A stretch of DNA of 39,968 nt from positions 1 through 39,968 of IMG/VR virus record IMGVR_UViG_3300034072_000973. The stretch is one strand, 5' to 3'. The notes under the pieces are model-generated. The model had not been told where the DNA came from. It saw only the letters and a list, made by a program, of their open reading frames with translations, and did no database searches. Shown here in pieces: positions 461 to 32,704 of this stretch (positions are counted from its first letter, which is position 1; each line of letters opens with the position of its first letter). The stretch comes from a virus. The translations under genes and the position numbers were made by a program.

Positions 461-463
461 TGG

Positions 464-537
464 TGGCCACAGTGGGGTTCGAACCCACGCCACACAAGAT
501 TTTAGAGATCCCGGCTCTACCGCTGAGCTATGTGGCC
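464..537 (-). tRNA. tRNA with anticodon CTA (amber suppressor type)
   Basis: The acceptor GGCCACA pairs with TGTGGCC; discriminator A; CCA is encoded at 461-463. The D arm is GCTC/GAGC and the T arm GTGGG-TTCGAAC-CCCAC. The anticodon stem GGGAT/ATCTT closes the loop CTCTAAA, so positions 34-36 are CTA, reading UAG. Other registers of the stem do not pair. The variable region is 7 nt, slightly long. The charged amino acid cannot be told from sequence. Confidence 0.85.
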
Positions 538-5764: not shown

Positions 5765-6484
5765 TTACTTGGTTACGATGAAGTCGAAAACATGATCCTC
5801 ACCAGCGAAGTTGACCGTGATCGAGATGTTCTCAGGATACTTGGTCTTTTTGATCTTGTTGAGAACCACCCGACCGCCATAGGAACCATCCGTGTCAACC
5901 GTGGTGGTCTGCAGGATCTCGTCGTTCAGGCTATCAAGCGTCTGCTGAAGCCGATACTGACTCAGCGCAATGCCACCAGCGCCTGCGGCGAGCGTGGCAA
6001 CCTGACCACCGCTGAGGCCAGGGTTTTGGATCCTGGTAGTATAAACCCCGCCACGCGGCGTTGTGGTAGTGATCAGGGTGTTATTATTCTGAGCCGCTGC
6101 TGCCACACCAGCAAGCATGGCAATGCCGATCTGCGACCACATCGCTCGGTTCTTGGCTTTGCTTTCCAACTCGTCCTTGGTAAAGCAAGCAATCCGTGTG
6201 TCGCCACGGGTCATGAAAACATTCTCAACGCCGAAGTTTGTGGACTCAGGCCCCTTGTTGTATGCGACCACCATGAACTGGAGACTTCCATGATCCAGTG
6301 ATGGGATTGGCATGATGCGAACTGCGCCATTCGTCATGTCATCTTCGATTGTGGGATTCCCCTTGTCATAGCGAACGGTCTGGCCTTCGCGAGGGACAGG
6401 CTTGATGCTGATCGGCTTTGCCAAAGCCGGACTAGCAAGACTCAGAGCAGCAACGATGGCGGCTCCAATAAAACTTTTGAACAT
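5765..6484 (-). CDS. exported protein with Gly/Ala-rich centre
   Basis: Signal peptide MFKSFIGAAIVAALSLASPALA, with cleavage likely after ALA. The mature part has a beta-rich N-terminal half, a hydrophobic helix (about residues 118-135), a Thr/Gly-rich linker (NNNTLITTTTPRGG) and a C-terminal beta domain. 239 residues. ATG at 6484 has AAGGAGATCGGA before it; an in-frame extension upstream lacks a ribosome site and covers a promoter. The function is not recognised; an envelope-located protein is likely. Confidence 0.7.
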   Translation of the reverse strand: MFKSFIGAAIVAALSLASPALAKPISIKPVPREGQTVRYDKGNPTIEDDMTNGAVRIMPIPSLDHGSLQFMVVAYNKGPESTNFGVENVFMTRGDTRIACFTKDELESKAKNRAMWSQIGIAMLAGVAAAAQNNNTLITTTTPRGGVYTTRIQNPGLSGGQVATLAAGAGGIALSQYRLQQTLDSLNDEILQTTTVDTDGSYGGRVVLNKIKKTKYPENISITVNFAGEDHVFDFIVTK

Positions 6485-6509
6485 TCCGATCTCCTTGTTA
6501 AGATTCCTA

Positions 6510-6537
6510 TTCGTAACAAGGACATAGCGGATGTCAA
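6510..6537 (-). promoter_or_regulatory. sigma70-like promoter, TTGACA-N16-TACGAA
   Basis: The -35 box at 6532-6537 is a perfect TTGACA; the -10 is at 6510-6515. It drives the exported protein gene starting at 6484. Confidence 0.6.
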
Positions 6538-6550
6538 GTTCAGACATGGA

Positions 6551-6580
6551 GAACCCCCAGCCGTTTCCGACCGGGGGTTC
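6551..6580 (-). terminator. strong hairpin at the 3' side of structured RNA A
   Basis: Stem GAACCCCC/GGGGGTTC, extended by inner CG pairs, with no clear T-run. Its position between the structured region and the next promoter fits a 3' end, either intrinsic or by processing. Confidence 0.55.
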
Positions 6581-6584
6581 ATGA

Positions 6585-7543
6585 GGAGGTTGAGAATACA
6601 CCTCTTATAAAACGTCTTCGAGCATTATCCCTGGCTTCTGACCAGTTTTCTCTCGATTTCCACTAAGCGTAGCCGAGGCAGTCACTTAGTAACGTCTCAA
6701 AGCCGCCAATTTATAAACCGCTGGCATTAGCGGTGTCCTTGTGAGTCTTTCGGCAGCGTCTAGCTACGCCTGGAATCGCTCCCAGTTAAGCGGCCGCTAA
6801 GCCACAACATAACCTCTTCTACCAACACCAATAGACGTTTGCCCCTATTAGTGTCCCTGTTAGCTTACGCCCAGGGAATTAGGCTTCTTCAACTTCACAA
6901 GCGAGTCAGGCTTTCAATTTTTGACAGCTATGTCCAATACAGCTAAACTGGCCTTGCGGCTAGAACCCATTGCGATGTGCTGACTCAGTAGCTTCAAAGG
7001 CTTTTGACCCTCAAAATACTACACACCACGTATCTTTCGCCTTGCGGGGCTACTAGATCAGTTTTCAAGAATTGTAATACAAAGCTGAACCTTTGTATTC
7101 CAACCCTATCAACTTGCCACTTGCCCTTGGCGCGACCCTCGGACTGAAGTGACTATCTCTTCCCACTTAGTACTGACCATATTTCGCTGGAGACGTTGGG
7201 GTGCGAAACCCATTATCGAGCCATCCGTTGGACCACTCGACTTATACCGCTTTCGCGGAACAGTCATCCTATGGTGTCCTACCTATCTCCGCAACCCTTG
7301 GAAGGGCCCGAAGAGCTATCTTTTGGATAGCAGGGTGAGACTTGCTTGTTATTGACCTATATTGCTATAGGCGGGACCTATTGGGTTTCGGCCCCTTTCC
7401 CTAAGTTGCCCTAGGTTATCTGCTACAAGCAGCAATCTCTAATCTCTTGAGCCTCTCAAGTAACACCTAAGTATCACCTTGTCAACAAAAAAGATTCGAT
7501 CGTTACCAACATTTTGCTTCGCAACGCTCTGCGCCGTGTTGGT
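6585..7543 (-). ncRNA. large structured non-coding RNA candidate (A)
   Basis: About 960 bases with no credible gene but many helices. Examples are AATACAAAG/CTTTGTATT (7076-7099), GCTATC/GATAGC around 7315-7331, CCTATA/TATAGG around 7356-7373, ACCGCT/AGCGGT (6717-6735), GCGTAGC/GCTACGC, and TCCCTG/CAGGGA. A promoter reads into it at 7550-7578, and a hairpin closes it at 6551-6580. Size, density of helices and placement in a tRNA-rich phage resemble the large ornate phage RNAs GOLLD and ROOL. I cannot assign either family by eye. Confidence 0.65.
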
Positions 7544-7549
7544 CTCATT

Positions 7550-7578
7550 GGTATATATAGGTTCAACACAGGCGTCAA
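7550..7578 (-). promoter_or_regulatory. promoter for structured RNA A, TTGACG-N17-TATACC
   Basis: The -35 box is at 7573-7578 and the -10 at 7550-7555, in the overlap of ATATATA-rich sequence. It lies just past the stop of the GIY-YIG gene and reads into the gene-free structured region, so that region has its own transcription start. Confidence 0.6.
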
Positions 7579-7607
7579 CAAGAAAAATACACTCTATGAC
7601 ATTTTTC

Positions 7608-8795
7608 TTACGTAGCCAATCTTTCTTCAATTCTTTCAGAGAGTTCCAGAATAGTGGAACGCGCTTCCTCAACTGTCATCTGAAACCATTCACCGTTTGG
7701 TCCACGCTTTTTAGCAAAAAATTTATGGATCACCTTTTCTGCGAGAACTCGATCTGGGAATCCGTGATAGAACGCAAACGAGAAGTCACCATGTGGATTG
7801 TGTGTATTGAATCCCACAAGCCTTTGGTTCAAGTCCATTGTCTGACCGATCTTAATCCATCCGGGAAATGAGGGTGATGTGACGATATATACAAAACCAC
7901 GACGATCAATATTTCGAGATTGGACCATTTTCAATTTTGGTTCAGTAGATTTGATCTCTACCTGCAAAGATAGTTGATCCTTGATTCTTTGTTCTTCTTT
8001 CCTCTTTATGGATTCTTTTTCCATGTTTAGTTGATGTTCACGTTGCTTTAAATTTTGAGAAATCTCTTTTCGTATAAAAGCTCGCAAGTCTTCTACTGAA
8101 GTCCAATTAGATAAAAGCTGGTTCCTTAATCTCTTTCGTTTTTTGTGAGTAGGAGCAAATATTTGCGCTACATAGTGAGCATTATATTTTGAAGCCGATA
8201 ACGAAATCCATTGTTCTTTACATAAATCATGGAATAATTGGCCGAATGAAGAGGAATCTGATACCACTACATTATTTGATACGGTTCCCATTTCTTTGTC
8301 AGCACGCCTCTGTTGCTTAGTCATCAGCTTTTCTTGACAACGCCGCATTTCCATGGCTTCAATTTCTTTTTCTCGAATAGCAATCTCGGCCGGTGTCAAA
8401 GACTTACCTAAATGGCGTTTGAGCACTATAAGGGGATAGGATTCATATAACTTATAAAATTCATCTTCACTAACCGCAATGAATTGACATACTGTCCGAT
8501 AATCTATCTCAACTCTGAAAGCGTGAAATACATCTAAAAGATTGGTTAAAGAGTTATCTGATAAGACTCTTGAATCAAGGTTTTCCTGTATCACATCATT
8601 TGATGCGTTTTGCTTTTCTAAAAGAAAAGCATCAGTCAGATTGAAAGTATCTATAGCTTTTAGAAAAGCCGGTAGTGATTGATGATAGCAAAGCTGCTGA
8701 TTCCAGTCTCGAACAGTTGAAAGCCCGATGGCTCGCCTGAGCGCGTTGAGCTTATTAATGCGTTTACGCAGGAATCTAGGTTTCAATTTTTCCAT
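7608..8795 (-). CDS. T5orf172-type GIY-YIG endonuclease
   Basis: The C-terminal 90 residues are a GIY-YIG-like nuclease of the T5orf172 class: GFVYIVTSPSFPGWIKIGQT, an Arg in NQRLVGFN, and a conserved EK helix (LAEKVIHKFF) ending in GEWFQM. Residues 1-290 are a long, charged, helical region with a coiled coil near 240-275 and probably bind DNA. 395 residues. The codon use is A/T-rich compared with neighbours, which suggests recent entry. It lies between two structured RNA candidates, which fits a mobile endonuclease inserted in a conserved non-coding region. Confidence 0.82.
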   Translation of the reverse strand: MEKLKPRFLRKRINKLNALRRAIGLSTVRDWNQQLCYHQSLPAFLKAIDTFNLTDAFLLEKQNASNDVIQENLDSRVLSDNSLTNLLDVFHAFRVEIDYRTVCQFIAVSEDEFYKLYESYPLIVLKRHLGKSLTPAEIAIREKEIEAMEMRRCQEKLMTKQQRRADKEMGTVSNNVVVSDSSSFGQLFHDLCKEQWISLSASKYNAHYVAQIFAPTHKKRKRLRNQLLSNWTSVEDLRAFIRKEISQNLKQREHQLNMEKESIKRKEEQRIKDQLSLQVEIKSTEPKLKMVQSRNIDRRGFVYIVTSPSFPGWIKIGQTMDLNQRLVGFNTHNPHGDFSFAFYHGFPDRVLAEKVIHKFFAKKRGPNGEWFQMTVEEARSTILELSERIEERLAT

Positions 8796-12818: not shown

Positions 12819-14015
12819 CTATTTGATTAGAGACTGGATTTCCAAGAGAGCAAGCCCTGCACTCTTTTCTACCGCCCGGTCTTTGCCCAATTCGCGAACT
12901 GATACCATACCCTTTTCAACGTCTCGTTTTCCGATGACTACGATCCAGTTACGTTTCATTTCACTGTGCTCTTTGATCTTTTGCTTAAGGTTCTCATCAC
13001 GATCGTCGTAAATCACACGAGCACCCTGGGACTTAGCCAGATCTCTGAACGCTTCGGCCGCTTTTTCCCCGCCAGGTAGAGGAATGACTACCACGTTCTC
13101 GGGAGAAAGCCAAAAGGGAAGATTGCCCTCATAGTTCTCCAGAAGAATACCTATGAATCTCTCAAAAGATCCAAGGATCGCACGATGAAGCATGACCGGA
13201 CGCTGGCGCGAACCGTCTTTTGCCACATATTCTGCATTCAAGCGATTAGGCAGAACCATATCAAGCTGAATGGTGCCACATTGCCATTCGCGGCCCTTGA
13301 GATCACGTAGAGCAAATTCTAGCTTGGGTCCGTAGAACGCACCTTCGCCTTCTTGGATCTCAAAAACCAGGCCAGCAGCTTTGACAGCTTCAGATAGATC
13401 GTGCTCTGCTTTGTTCCAATCTTCCTCGGAACCAGCTCGCACCGCTGGGCGGGTCGATAGGCCGACCACAACATCAGAGAACCCAAAGTCATTATACACC
13501 TCCTTTAGCAAGAGGATGAACGACTTGACTTCATCAACTACCTGCTCAGGCGCGCAAAAAATATGCGCATCGTCTTGCGTAAACTGCCGAACCCTCATGA
13601 TACCATGTAGAGCGCCGCTGGGTTCGCTACGATGACAACATCCAAACTCAGCTAGACGGATAGGCAGTTGGCGATATGAAACCACATCGCTGTTGAATAT
13701 CTGAACATGACCAGGACAGTTCATTGGCTTGATAGCAAATTGCCTCTGATCATCGTCAAGGACGTACATATTGTCCTTGAACTTGTCCCAGTGTCCAGAC
13801 TTTTCCCAAAGGGATTTATCAACAAGCTGTGGCGTCTTGACCTCTTGATAGCCTTCACGTTTGAGCTTGGATCGGATATACTCTTCAATTATTCTGAAAA
13901 GTTCATACCCTCTTGGATGCCAGAATACTGAGCCTGCGGCATCATCTTGTAGGTGGAAAAGTTTGAGCTCACGACCAAGACGACGATGATCGGAATTTGA
14001 AAGTTGAATATCCAT
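12819..14015 (-). CDS. threonyl-tRNA synthetase, catalytic core and anticodon domain only
   Basis: The protein holds class II motif 1 (GYQEVKTPQL), motif 2 (FGCCHRSEPSGALHG, then FTQDDAHIF) and motif 3 (MLHRAILGSFERFIGIL), plus the NCPGH Cys that binds the active-site zinc in ThrRS. A C-terminal anticodon-binding domain follows (residues about 295-398). The usual TGS and editing domains are absent (398 residues against about 640), so it cannot correct Ser-tRNA(Thr) itself. The stop is TAG, and there is no clear ribosome site at 14015. Three or four phage tRNA-Thr genes in the window are plausible substrates. Confidence 0.93.
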   Translation of the reverse strand: MDIQLSNSDHRRLGRELKLFHLQDDAAGSVFWHPRGYELFRIIEEYIRSKLKREGYQEVKTPQLVDKSLWEKSGHWDKFKDNMYVLDDDQRQFAIKPMNCPGHVQIFNSDVVSYRQLPIRLAEFGCCHRSEPSGALHGIMRVRQFTQDDAHIFCAPEQVVDEVKSFILLLKEVYNDFGFSDVVVGLSTRPAVRAGSEEDWNKAEHDLSEAVKAAGLVFEIQEGEGAFYGPKLEFALRDLKGREWQCGTIQLDMVLPNRLNAEYVAKDGSRQRPVMLHRAILGSFERFIGILLENYEGNLPFWLSPENVVVIPLPGGEKAAEAFRDLAKSQGARVIYDDRDENLKQKIKEHSEMKRNWIVVIGKRDVEKGMVSVRELGKDRAVEKSAGLALLEIQSLIK

Positions 14016-14646: not shown

Positions 14647-14696
14647 ACTAAAGTTCTATGCCCTTGTGGCTCAGAAATCAATTTAGATGAGAGGTT

Positions 14697-14829
14697 GCGA
14701 CGGGCAAGTTGATGTCTATGGTAGGGAGCCTGTTGCTCTACCAACTGAGCTACCACAGAGCGAACTCTGTGGATGGGATTCGAACCCACGACCTTCTGGT
14801 TTGGTAATCCACAAACTTCGGCCCGTCGC
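14697..14829 (-). tRNA. circularly permuted tRNA, Trp-like (CCA)
   Basis: On the minus strand the 3' half comes first: anticodon-side AAACCAG, T arm GTGGG-TTCGAAT-CCCAT, acceptor CCACAGA. After a 6-base linker (GTTCGC) the 5' half follows: acceptor TCTGTGG, D arm GCTC-AGTTGGTA-GAGC, then ACAGGCTCC. Joining the ends gives a loop CTCCAAA (CCA, Trp), although the anticodon stem has mismatches. The locus is enclosed by GCGACGGGC/GCCCGTCGC with the shared CGA and ACTT bases. The TTATC box is diverged (ATTACC). Confidence 0.65.
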
Positions 14830-14867
14830 ATGTAAGGTTTGCTTGGAATCAATTAAGATGTCAAGTC

Positions 14868-17415: not shown

Positions 17416-17428
17416 ATAGTATTTAGTC

Positions 17429-17568
17429 GAGGGCAAGTAGCCGTATGGCATCGTTCCGTCGCGTCTACCAATTTCCGCCACTTCCCGTCAGTTGGTCGGG
17501 AAGGCAGGGATCGAACCTGCAAGACCAAAGTCAACAGTTTTATTAGATAAGCCAAACAATCGGCCCTC
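17429..17568 (-). tRNA. circularly permuted tRNA, Leu-type body
   Basis: 3' half first: long variable arm, T arm GCAGG-TTCGATC-CCTGC, acceptor CTTCCCG, A, CCA. A 5-base linker ACTGA is followed by the 5' half: acceptor CGGGAAG and a Leu-type D arm (GTGGCGGAAATTGG). The terminal helix is GAGGGC/GCCCTC with CGA, TTATC and ACTT boxes. ACGG and CTGT form the anticodon stem after joining, but the loop (AATAAA or CTAATAA) gives no clear Leu anticodon. The linker is identical to that of the locus at 32492. Confidence 0.7.
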
Positions 17569-17574
17569 AACTTG

Positions 17575-17838: not shown

Positions 17839-17888
17839 TTTTCACCAATAATATGAGTGGATTATACTCATATTTACTCAGTGTGGGT

Positions 17889-18029
17889 TTCAACGGGCAA
17901 GTTACGAAAAGGATGTTTTTCGGTGTCCTAACCACTAGACGAACCCCGCATAATGTAGAGCGGAGTATGGGATTCGAACCCATGTTACCGGCTTAGAAGG
18001 CGATAACCCTCATCAGTCGGCCCGTTGAA
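17889..18029 (-). tRNA. circularly permuted tRNA-Arg (TCT)
   Basis: 3' half: GC-CTTCTAA-GCCGG, variable TAACA, T arm ending CCCAT, acceptor ACTCCGC. A 10-base linker is followed by the 5' half: acceptor GCGGGGT, D arm GTCTAGTGGTTAGGAC, ACCG. Joining ACCG to GCCTTCTAA gives a perfect stem CCGGC/GCCGG with anticodon TCT; the break is between positions 29 and 30. The terminal helix TTCAACGGGC/GCCCGTTGAA has the CGA, TTATC and ACTT boxes. A normal tRNA-Arg(TCT) lies at 18847. Confidence 0.8.
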
Positions 18030-18437
18030 TTATTTTGGATCGCGCATCATATCCACTGCGCCGTCAACTTCGTCCATTTCATGGAAACCATGCTTTTTAT
18101 ACCAAGCAACCAAAACGTCTGTTGAGGTATCAGCATAGCCATCAGCAGTGAGCTTGATCGTTACGTCATATTTGTCAGCAAGATCACACAAAACCCTCAG
18201 AGCCTGGGTTCCCGACCCCGAGCCCGAACCCTGTATATCACTAAGGCGAACCGTGGTGTTTCCCAAACCTCGAACTTCAACCTTTGCGGAACCAAGGATT
18301 CGCTGCCTGTGGTTGAATGGACTCTCTTGGGTGATACTATCCAATTCGTCTAGAAATTTTTGTGCCGGGGAGTCAGCTGATGGTGTCATGCCACCCAGCT
18401 TGATTGTTATCTCATTTGTGATTTCGTGCCAGCGCAT
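18030..18437 (-). CDS. GNAT-like acetyltransferase with capsid-targeting-like N-terminus
   Basis: Starts MRWHEITNE, like other putative packaged proteins here. The C-terminal half reads IQGSGSGSGTQALRVLCDL, then VTIKLTADGY and LVAWYKKHGFHEM: the acetyl-CoA pyrophosphate loop, beta strand and C-terminal YxxxGF of GNAT enzymes. 135 residues. AATAAATA lies four bases before the ATG and directly follows the CCA of tRNA-Arg(CCT). The stop abuts the permuted tRNA. Substrate unknown; an injected acetyltransferase is the inference. Confidence 0.72.
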   Translation of the reverse strand: MRWHEITNEITIKLGGMTPSADSPAQKFLDELDSITQESPFNHRQRILGSAKVEVRGLGNTTVRLSDIQGSGSGSGTQALRVLCDLADKYDVTIKLTADGYADTSTDVLVAWYKKHGFHEMDEVDGAVDMMRDPK

Positions 18438-21005: not shown

Positions 21006-21052
21006 AGCCGATCTCCCTGTGAGAGTGTCGACTATTTACCGCTAAAAGAGGA

Positions 21053-21125
21053 ACATGGGCAAGTTAGTGGACAGGAGATTGGTTCAAAGTTTGAGTTTGA
21101 TAATCCTGTGCCATTCGGCCCATGT
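21053..21125 (-). ncRNA. empty copy of the permuted-tRNA flanking element (1)
   Basis: 5'-ACATGGGC-CGA ... ACAGGA-TTATC ... GAACC ... TCCTGT ... ACTT-GCCCATGT-3': the same terminal helix, CGA, TTATC and ACTT boxes as the permuted tRNAs, but only about 20 bases lie in the middle and no tRNA. It starts two bases after the CCA of the initiator tRNA. Confidence 0.7.
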
Positions 21126-21130
21126 ATTGG

Positions 21131-32486: not shown

Positions 32487-32491
32487 ATGGT

Positions 32492-32629
32492 CAACGGGCA
32501 AGTGGTGAGTAGGATGTTTTTCCCGGCTTTACCAATTTGCCTATCCCCCGTCAGTTGGTCGGGGGAGGAGGACTTGAACCTCCAAACAGGGCTTTCCAAT
32601 AGCGATAACCCTAATCAATCGGCCCGTTG
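32492..32629 (-). tRNA. circularly permuted tRNA-Pro (TGG)
   Basis: 3' half: CT-ATTGGAA-AGCCC, T arm GGAGG-TTCAAGT-CCTCC, acceptor TCCCCCG, A, CCA. Linker ACTGA. 5' half: acceptor CGGGGGA, D arm GGC/GCC, GGG. Joining gives the perfect stem GGGCT/AGCCC with anticodon TGG; the break is after position 28 or 29. Terminal helix CAACGGGC/GCCCGTTG with CGA, TTATC and ACTT. It starts at the CCA of tRNA-Pro(CGG). A normal tRNA-Pro(TGG) is at 29998. Confidence 0.82.
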
Positions 32630-32630
32630 G

Positions 32631-32704
32631 TCTAGGTGAGAGGATTCGAACCTCCAATCCCTTGCTCCCGAAGCAAGTGCCTTACCAGATTAGGCCACAC
32701 CTAG
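32631..32704 (-). tRNA. tRNA-Pro (CGG)
   Basis: Acceptor CTAGGTG/CACCTAG, discriminator A, CCA encoded, stem CTTGC/GCAAG, loop TTCGGGA. Confidence 0.92.

What the first reader, a model, noticed from the sequence alone, without database searches (positions are those of the whole stretch)
6551..7578. Large structured RNA A with its own promoter
Nearly 1 kb without genes, with at least eight clear helices, a consensus-like promoter (7550-7578) and a closing hairpin. Giant phage RNAs such as GOLLD and ROOL are found near tRNAs, so this is either a new member or a new class.
Basis: partly seen in the sequence, partly recalled or inferred. Interest (0 to 1): 0.8.

Follow-up and report, generated by a model that had tools for sequence, protein, structure and literature searches.

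The report
GOLLD cage RNA in jumbo phage
The 1-kb gene-free stretch makes a new member of GOLLD, a known family of large phage RNAs whose one solved member assembles on its own into a hollow cage; here it lies in a fragment of what is very probably a giant (about 435-kb) phage rich in tRNA genes.

Summary
The minus strand of 6547-7578 is one RNA gene: a promoter (7578-7550), a roughly 999-nt transcript (7545 to about 6547) and a closing hairpin (6551-6580). It belongs to the known GOLLD family. Rfam RF02032 matches 6587-7029 over the whole model (163.5 bits, cut-off 150, E 3e-44). In a 56-sequence alignment of relatives, 88.5% of structure cells pair (68% shuffled, 34-43% slid), and 83 of 112 pairs keep pairing through changes on both sides. 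The upstream half, outside the Rfam model, is also GOLLD: its last 150 nt match a profile of other GOLLD 5' domains (E 2e-13). The RNA is 92-95% identical to that of a 435,856-bp phage contig, against 60-88% in neighbouring genes. The promoter is kept in four of four members of this lineage although its spacer differs. So this is a new member of a known kind, not a new class. By homology to the cryo-EM structure it should form an RNA-only cage; function is unknown. One feature of note: most relatives (37 of 56) carry a tRNA in the linker that faces the cage interior, but this lineage has only short hairpins there, so a tRNA cannot be essential to the family.

The parts
7550..7578 (-). sigma-70-type promoter TTGACG-N17-TATACC
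   Evidence: Same boxes and spacing in G034, G019 and G069 with divergent spacer sequence; near-perfect promoters 400-720 nt upstream of the 3' domain in 19 of 52 relatives against 0.26 in shuffles
6547..7545 (-). predicted GOLLD transcript, about 999 nt (5' end set by the promoter and the conserved AGACCAA; 3' end inferred from the end of conservation)
   Evidence: 92-97% identity to G034 inside the RNA against 77-84% in the intergenic flanks
7030..7545 (-). GOLLD 5' domain (the half that forms the cap in the solved structure); divergent except for its last 150 nt
   Evidence: nhmmer E 2e-13 to a profile of other GOLLD 5' regions built without this clade; consensus fold with 36 pairs showing compensatory change
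6587..7029 (-). GOLLD 3' domain (conserved core), whole Rfam model 1-416
   Evidence: RF02032 163.5 bits, E 3.2e-44; covariation
6915..6972 (-). linker: the region that lies disordered inside the cage in the solved structure; short hairpins here, no tRNA
6980..6986 (-). GAGTCAG, 5' strand of a 7-bp helix that spans the linker (3' strand CTGACTC at 6903-6909)
   Evidence: 99.7% of cells paired, 3 of 7 pairs with double changes, helix 3
6903..6909 (-). CTGACTC, 3' strand of the linker-spanning helix
   Evidence: helix 3
6882..6886 (-). AAGCC, 5' strand of a pseudoknot (3' strand GGCTT at 6700-6704)
   Evidence: found by covariation; 98.6% paired, all 5 pairs with double changes (helix 6)
6700..6704 (-). 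GGCTT, 3' strand of the pseudoknot
   Evidence: helix 6
6790..6805 (-). hairpin L21a with loop UUAGCG, counterpart of the self-kissing loop that joins the two half-shells
   Evidence: a self-complementary GC lies in this loop in 56 of 56 sequences; matched by position to bridge B8 of PMC12286853
6551..6580 (-). closing hairpin, 13 bp with GAAA loop, followed by TCCA, no U-run
   Evidence: kept with compensatory changes in G019 and G069; 97% identical in G034

Best explanation
It is a full-length GOLLD RNA gene of a jumbo phage, transcribed from its own promoter as a stand-alone RNA of about 1 kb. Shown here by sequence: membership, the covarying fold of the 3' domain, the homologous 5' domain, the conserved promoter and the conserved closing hairpin. 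Inferred from the cryo-EM structure of GOLLD env-38 (PMC12286853): copies assemble without protein into a closed RNA cage through loop-loop and A-minor contacts, with the linker inside. Inferred with low confidence: the cage holds or protects something useful during infection, perhaps connected with translation, since the gene sits in a phage with dozens of tRNA genes, its own ThrRS and Y RNAs. In this lineage the cage carries no tRNA in its linker.
For: Rfam GOLLD over the full model, E 3.2e-44. 56-sequence alignment: 88.5% paired against 68.0 +/- 0.3 shuffled and 34-43% slid; 1290 cells changed on both sides against 397 shuffled. Two helices outside the Rfam structure covary too. 5' domain homology E 2e-13. 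Promoter conserved. RNA more conserved than its flanks. L21a GC kept in 56 of 56. Full-length relatives in contigs of 436, 465 and 417 kb.
Against: The Rfam score is only 13 bits above the cut-off, so it is a divergent member. The 5' domain is recognisable only over its last 150 nt, so the cap contacts and the copy number of a cage cannot be read off. No transcript or particle has been seen for this phage. The closing hairpin lacks a U-run, so the 3' end is uncertain.
Confidence: 0.85

Rival explanations
1. A new class of giant RNA that only resembles GOLLD.
For: Score close to the Rfam cut-off; 5' domain without BLAST similarity to the other GOLLDs gathered.
Against: Full-model match, sequence-level core motifs, covariation and 5' domain homology.
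Confidence: 0.02
2. A decayed GOLLD: a relic on its way out.
For: Divergent score, linker tRNA absent, weak -10 box.
Against: Compensatory pairs kept; 92-97% identity inside the RNA against 60-88% in neighbouring regions; promoter kept in four of four.
Confidence: 0.05
3. Functional rival: GOLLD is mainly a carrier or store of phage tRNAs, the linker tRNA being the point.
For: 37 of 56 relatives carry an ARAGORN tRNA at the same linker position with many identities; most of the rest look like degenerate tRNAs.
Against: The window and its three nearest relatives, and L204, L205, L237, have no tRNA there.
Confidence: 0.25
4. Functional rival: the cage binds or sequesters ribosomes, or shelters proteins or metabolites.
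For: Ribosome pull-down and a lysis-time rise in expression are reported for GOLLD (cited in PMC12286853).
Against: Nothing in this sequence bears on it.
Confidence: 0.25
5. A long leader of the downstream gene 5765-6484 rather than a separate RNA.
For: Same strand, 60 nt apart.
Against: Conservation drops to 77% right after the hairpin; the relatives G019 and G069 diverge there; the downstream gene has its own ribosome-binding site.
Confidence: 0.03

Closest known systems
GOLLD RNA, Rfam RF02032; structure of env-38 (Kretsch et al. 2025, PMC12286853)
   Same: Whole 3' domain model, covarying helices and pseudoknots, L21a loop with GC, 5' and 3' domains, size over 800 nt, phage genome rich in tRNA genes.
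   Different: About 1 kb rather than 833 nt; strongly diverged 5' domain; no tRNA in the linker; conserved 13-bp GAAA hairpin after the Rfam 3' end.
GOLLD of Sinorhizobium phage Phosso (PV764938, 469 kb) and of phiCbK-like Caulobacter phages
   Same: Same family (186.6 and 169.7 bits), jumbo phages.
   Different: They carry a tRNA inside the linker, and an ordinary U-run terminator.
ROOL RNA
   Same: Giant phage RNA near tRNA genes that forms a cage (literature).
   Different: No ROOL match in the window.

Membership tests
GOLLD (RF02032) | Covariance-model match over the curated cut-off | tested here: met
   163.5 bits against 150, model 1-416 complete
GOLLD (RF02032) | Conserved 3' domain with covarying helices and pseudoknots | tested here: met
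   MAFFT alignment made without structure
GOLLD (RF02032) | Less conserved 5' domain upstream | tested here: met
   nhmmer E 2e-13 over the last 150 nt; the rest diverged
GOLLD (RF02032) | Length of many members over 800 nt | tested here: met
   999 nt between promoter and closing hairpin; ends not mapped by experiment
GOLLD (RF02032) | Phage or prophage location near tRNA genes | tested here: met
   52 ARAGORN tRNAs in the window; synteny with a 435,856-bp viral contig
GOLLD (RF02032) | Self-complementary L21a loop (half-shell contact B8) | tested here: met
   UUAGCG in the window; GC in this loop in 56 of 56
GOLLD (RF02032) | Homo-oligomeric RNA cage (14-mer for env-38) | not testable with these tools
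   needs mass photometry or cryo-EM
ROOL | Match to the Rfam ROOL model | tested here: not met
   no match at gathering threshold in the window, none with E up to 5 in 6300-7900
OLE | Match to the Rfam OLE model | tested here: not met

The most novel reading that the evidence does not exclude
The GOLLD linker is a swappable cargo site inside an RNA cage: most phage GOLLDs load a tRNA there (about a dozen identities by anticodon, including CTA and TCA, and two apparently circularly permuted tRNAs with encoded CCA), whereas this jumbo-phage lineage has replaced the tRNA by short hairpins and rebuilt its 5' cap domain, so its cage would be an empty or differently loaded variant.
Probability: 0.15. 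Interest if true: 0.65.

Novelty: new member of a known kind. Interest (0 to 1): 0.35.

Why it matters
GOLLD is one of the few natural RNAs known to build a cage without protein, and its job is unknown. A lineage with a conserved fold but no linker tRNA limits the tRNA-carrier idea, and the cultured relatives found here (Phosso in Sinorhizobium, phiCbK-like phages in Caulobacter) are laboratory systems in which expression, assembly and deletion could be tested.

Tried and rejected
A tRNA-like 3' CCA end on the closing hairpin was considered, but it is confined to four related sequences and other GOLLDs end in ordinary terminators. Permuted tRNA genes elsewhere in the window were at first suspected; the flanking motif turned out to match Y RNA models and the phage relatives encode Ro60, so they are read as YrlA-like Y RNAs. 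The Rfam pairing of one hairpin (window about 6717-6734) was replaced by the one that covaries. ORFs inside the region were checked and dropped.

Full report
What is there. The window is a 39,968-base viral record, collinear over most of the stretch compared (window 4-27,053) with a 435,856-bp viral contig, G034, so it is very probably a piece of a jumbo phage. Most long ORFs and all 52 ARAGORN tRNA genes lie on the minus strand. Between a gene with a T5orf172 domain (7608-8795) and a 239-codon gene without known family (5765-6484) is a gap of about 1.1 kb that holds the finding.

It is GOLLD. cmscan against all of Rfam gives RF02032 at 6587-7029 (-), 163.5 bits, cut-off 150, E 3.2e-44, model complete. 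BLASTN finds the same core in Sinorhizobium phage Phosso and in phiCbK-like Caulobacter phages, whose copies also pass the GOLLD cut-off. A sequence pattern from the first helix found 76 viral stretches; of the 80 records then searched whole (these plus a few others and three phage records), 65 held GOLLD. After removal of near-duplicates 56 sequences were aligned with MAFFT, without structure.

Covariation. The Rfam structure of the window row, with one hairpin re-paired and two pseudoknot helices added, was counted on this alignment. 88.5% of cells pair against 68.0% in shuffles and 34-43% in slid controls; 83 of 112 pairs show changes on both sides; 1290 such cells against 397. Caveat: the added helices were chosen from the same alignment, so their own counts are not independent; the Rfam helices are. 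Some helices fit poorly (9, 10, 13 at 52-58%), as expected for a sequence-only alignment of variable stems. A 7-bp helix bridging the linker and a 5-bp pseudoknot, the latter resembling the L22-J17/22 pseudoknot of the cryo-EM structure, pair in 99.7% and 98.6% of cells.

The upstream half. Rfam models only the 3' half. The window and three contigs of 417-465 kb share the upstream 514-607 nt, which fold with 36 pairs showing compensatory change among only four sequences. A profile of the upstream regions of the other GOLLDs, built without this clade, finds the window 5' domain at E 2e-13 over its last 150 nt. So this is a full-length, diverged GOLLD.

Ends. The promoter TTGACG-N17-TATACC at 7578-7550 is kept as TTGACG-N17-TATAAG/C in the three relatives, each followed four bases later by AGACCAA, although the spacer is different. 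Near-perfect promoters (11 or 12 of 12) lie 400-720 nt upstream of the 3' domain in 19 of 52 relatives against 0.26 expected. Against G034 identity is 94.9% in the 5' domain, 91.9% in the 3' domain and 97.4% in the closing hairpin, but 77-84% in the intergenic flanks and 60-88% in neighbouring coding regions. The closing hairpin (6551-6580) is 13 bp with GAAA, and changes in G019 and G069 keep it paired. It lacks a U-run; several other GOLLDs, Phosso and phiCbK-like ones included, have ordinary terminators at this place.

Cage parts. In the solved GOLLD the linker (nt 497-538) is inside the cage and loop L21a joins half-shells by a self-complementary dinucleotide (PMC12286853). The corresponding window loop is UUAGCG, and GC is in this loop in 56 of 56 sequences. 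This assignment is by position, not by structure. No assembly was tested.

Linker. 37 of 56 GOLLDs have an ARAGORN tRNA at one fixed place in the linker, with varied anticodons. The annotated tRNA-Gly of Caulobacter phages is one of them. That tRNAs are sometimes in the linker is already published. The window, G034, G019 and G069 have only 45-58 nt with small hairpins. The sample was picked by a pattern, so the proportion is not a census.

Function. Not shown. What is inferred: own promoter, stand-alone RNA, protein-free cage. Holding tRNAs cannot be the whole story because this lineage keeps the RNA without one. The neighbourhood (tRNA genes; a ThrRS-like protein at 12819-14015 with 51.5% identity to that of Phosso; Y RNAs) fits a phage that takes over translation.

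Verdict. New member of a known kind.

Noticed in passing
window 14694-14832, 17423-17574, 17887-18031, 32488-32633 and (without tRNA-like part) 21049-21129, all minus: Five copies of a Y-RNA-like stem (GGGCCGA..GGNTTAYC....ACTTGCCC), four with a permuted tRNA-like module (T-arm, 3' acceptor, short loop, 5' acceptor, D-arm), two of these with ACCA after the acceptor. Read as YrlA-like Y RNAs; at Rfam's cut-offs only the 14.7-kb copy shows, as nematode sRNA ceN72-3. Copies also in G034, G019, Phosso and other contigs.
   Followed up: partly
G034, G019, G069 and Phosso records: These jumbo phages encode a TROVE-domain (Ro60) protein, the usual partner of Y RNAs; none is in the window fragment itself.
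   Followed up: partly
L212 (1501-1987) and L220 (1501-1990): The tRNA in the GOLLD linker appears circularly permuted, with encoded ACCA and intact anticodon arm (Lys CTT, Ile GAT): GOLLD sits in the tRNA's variable loop. ARAGORN accepts both after rotation.
   Followed up: partly
L160, L041, L199, L243: Further permuted tRNA-like elements with other flanking motifs (e.g. TTTTCAGCA...CCTGTTAA; GAGCCAATGCTTATTTCTT...TTGGCC), not identified.
   Followed up: no
window 461-537 (-): tRNA with anticodon CTA (possible amber suppressor); whether the phage reads TAG as sense was not tested.
   Followed up: no
L124 3132-3450 and L125 2201-2519: A permuted tmRNA lies about 0.6 kb or less from the GOLLD 3' domain on the opposite strand in phiCbK-like phages.
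   Followed up: no
G015:C1:167864-168218: A second, weak GOLLD-like match (40.2 bits) in a 424-kb contig that also has a full GOLLD.
   Followed up: no
window 7608-8795 (-): The gene just upstream of GOLLD, with a T5orf172 (GIY-YIG-like) domain, is only 60% identical with many gaps to its G034 counterpart, the fastest-changing of the regions compared.
   Followed up: no
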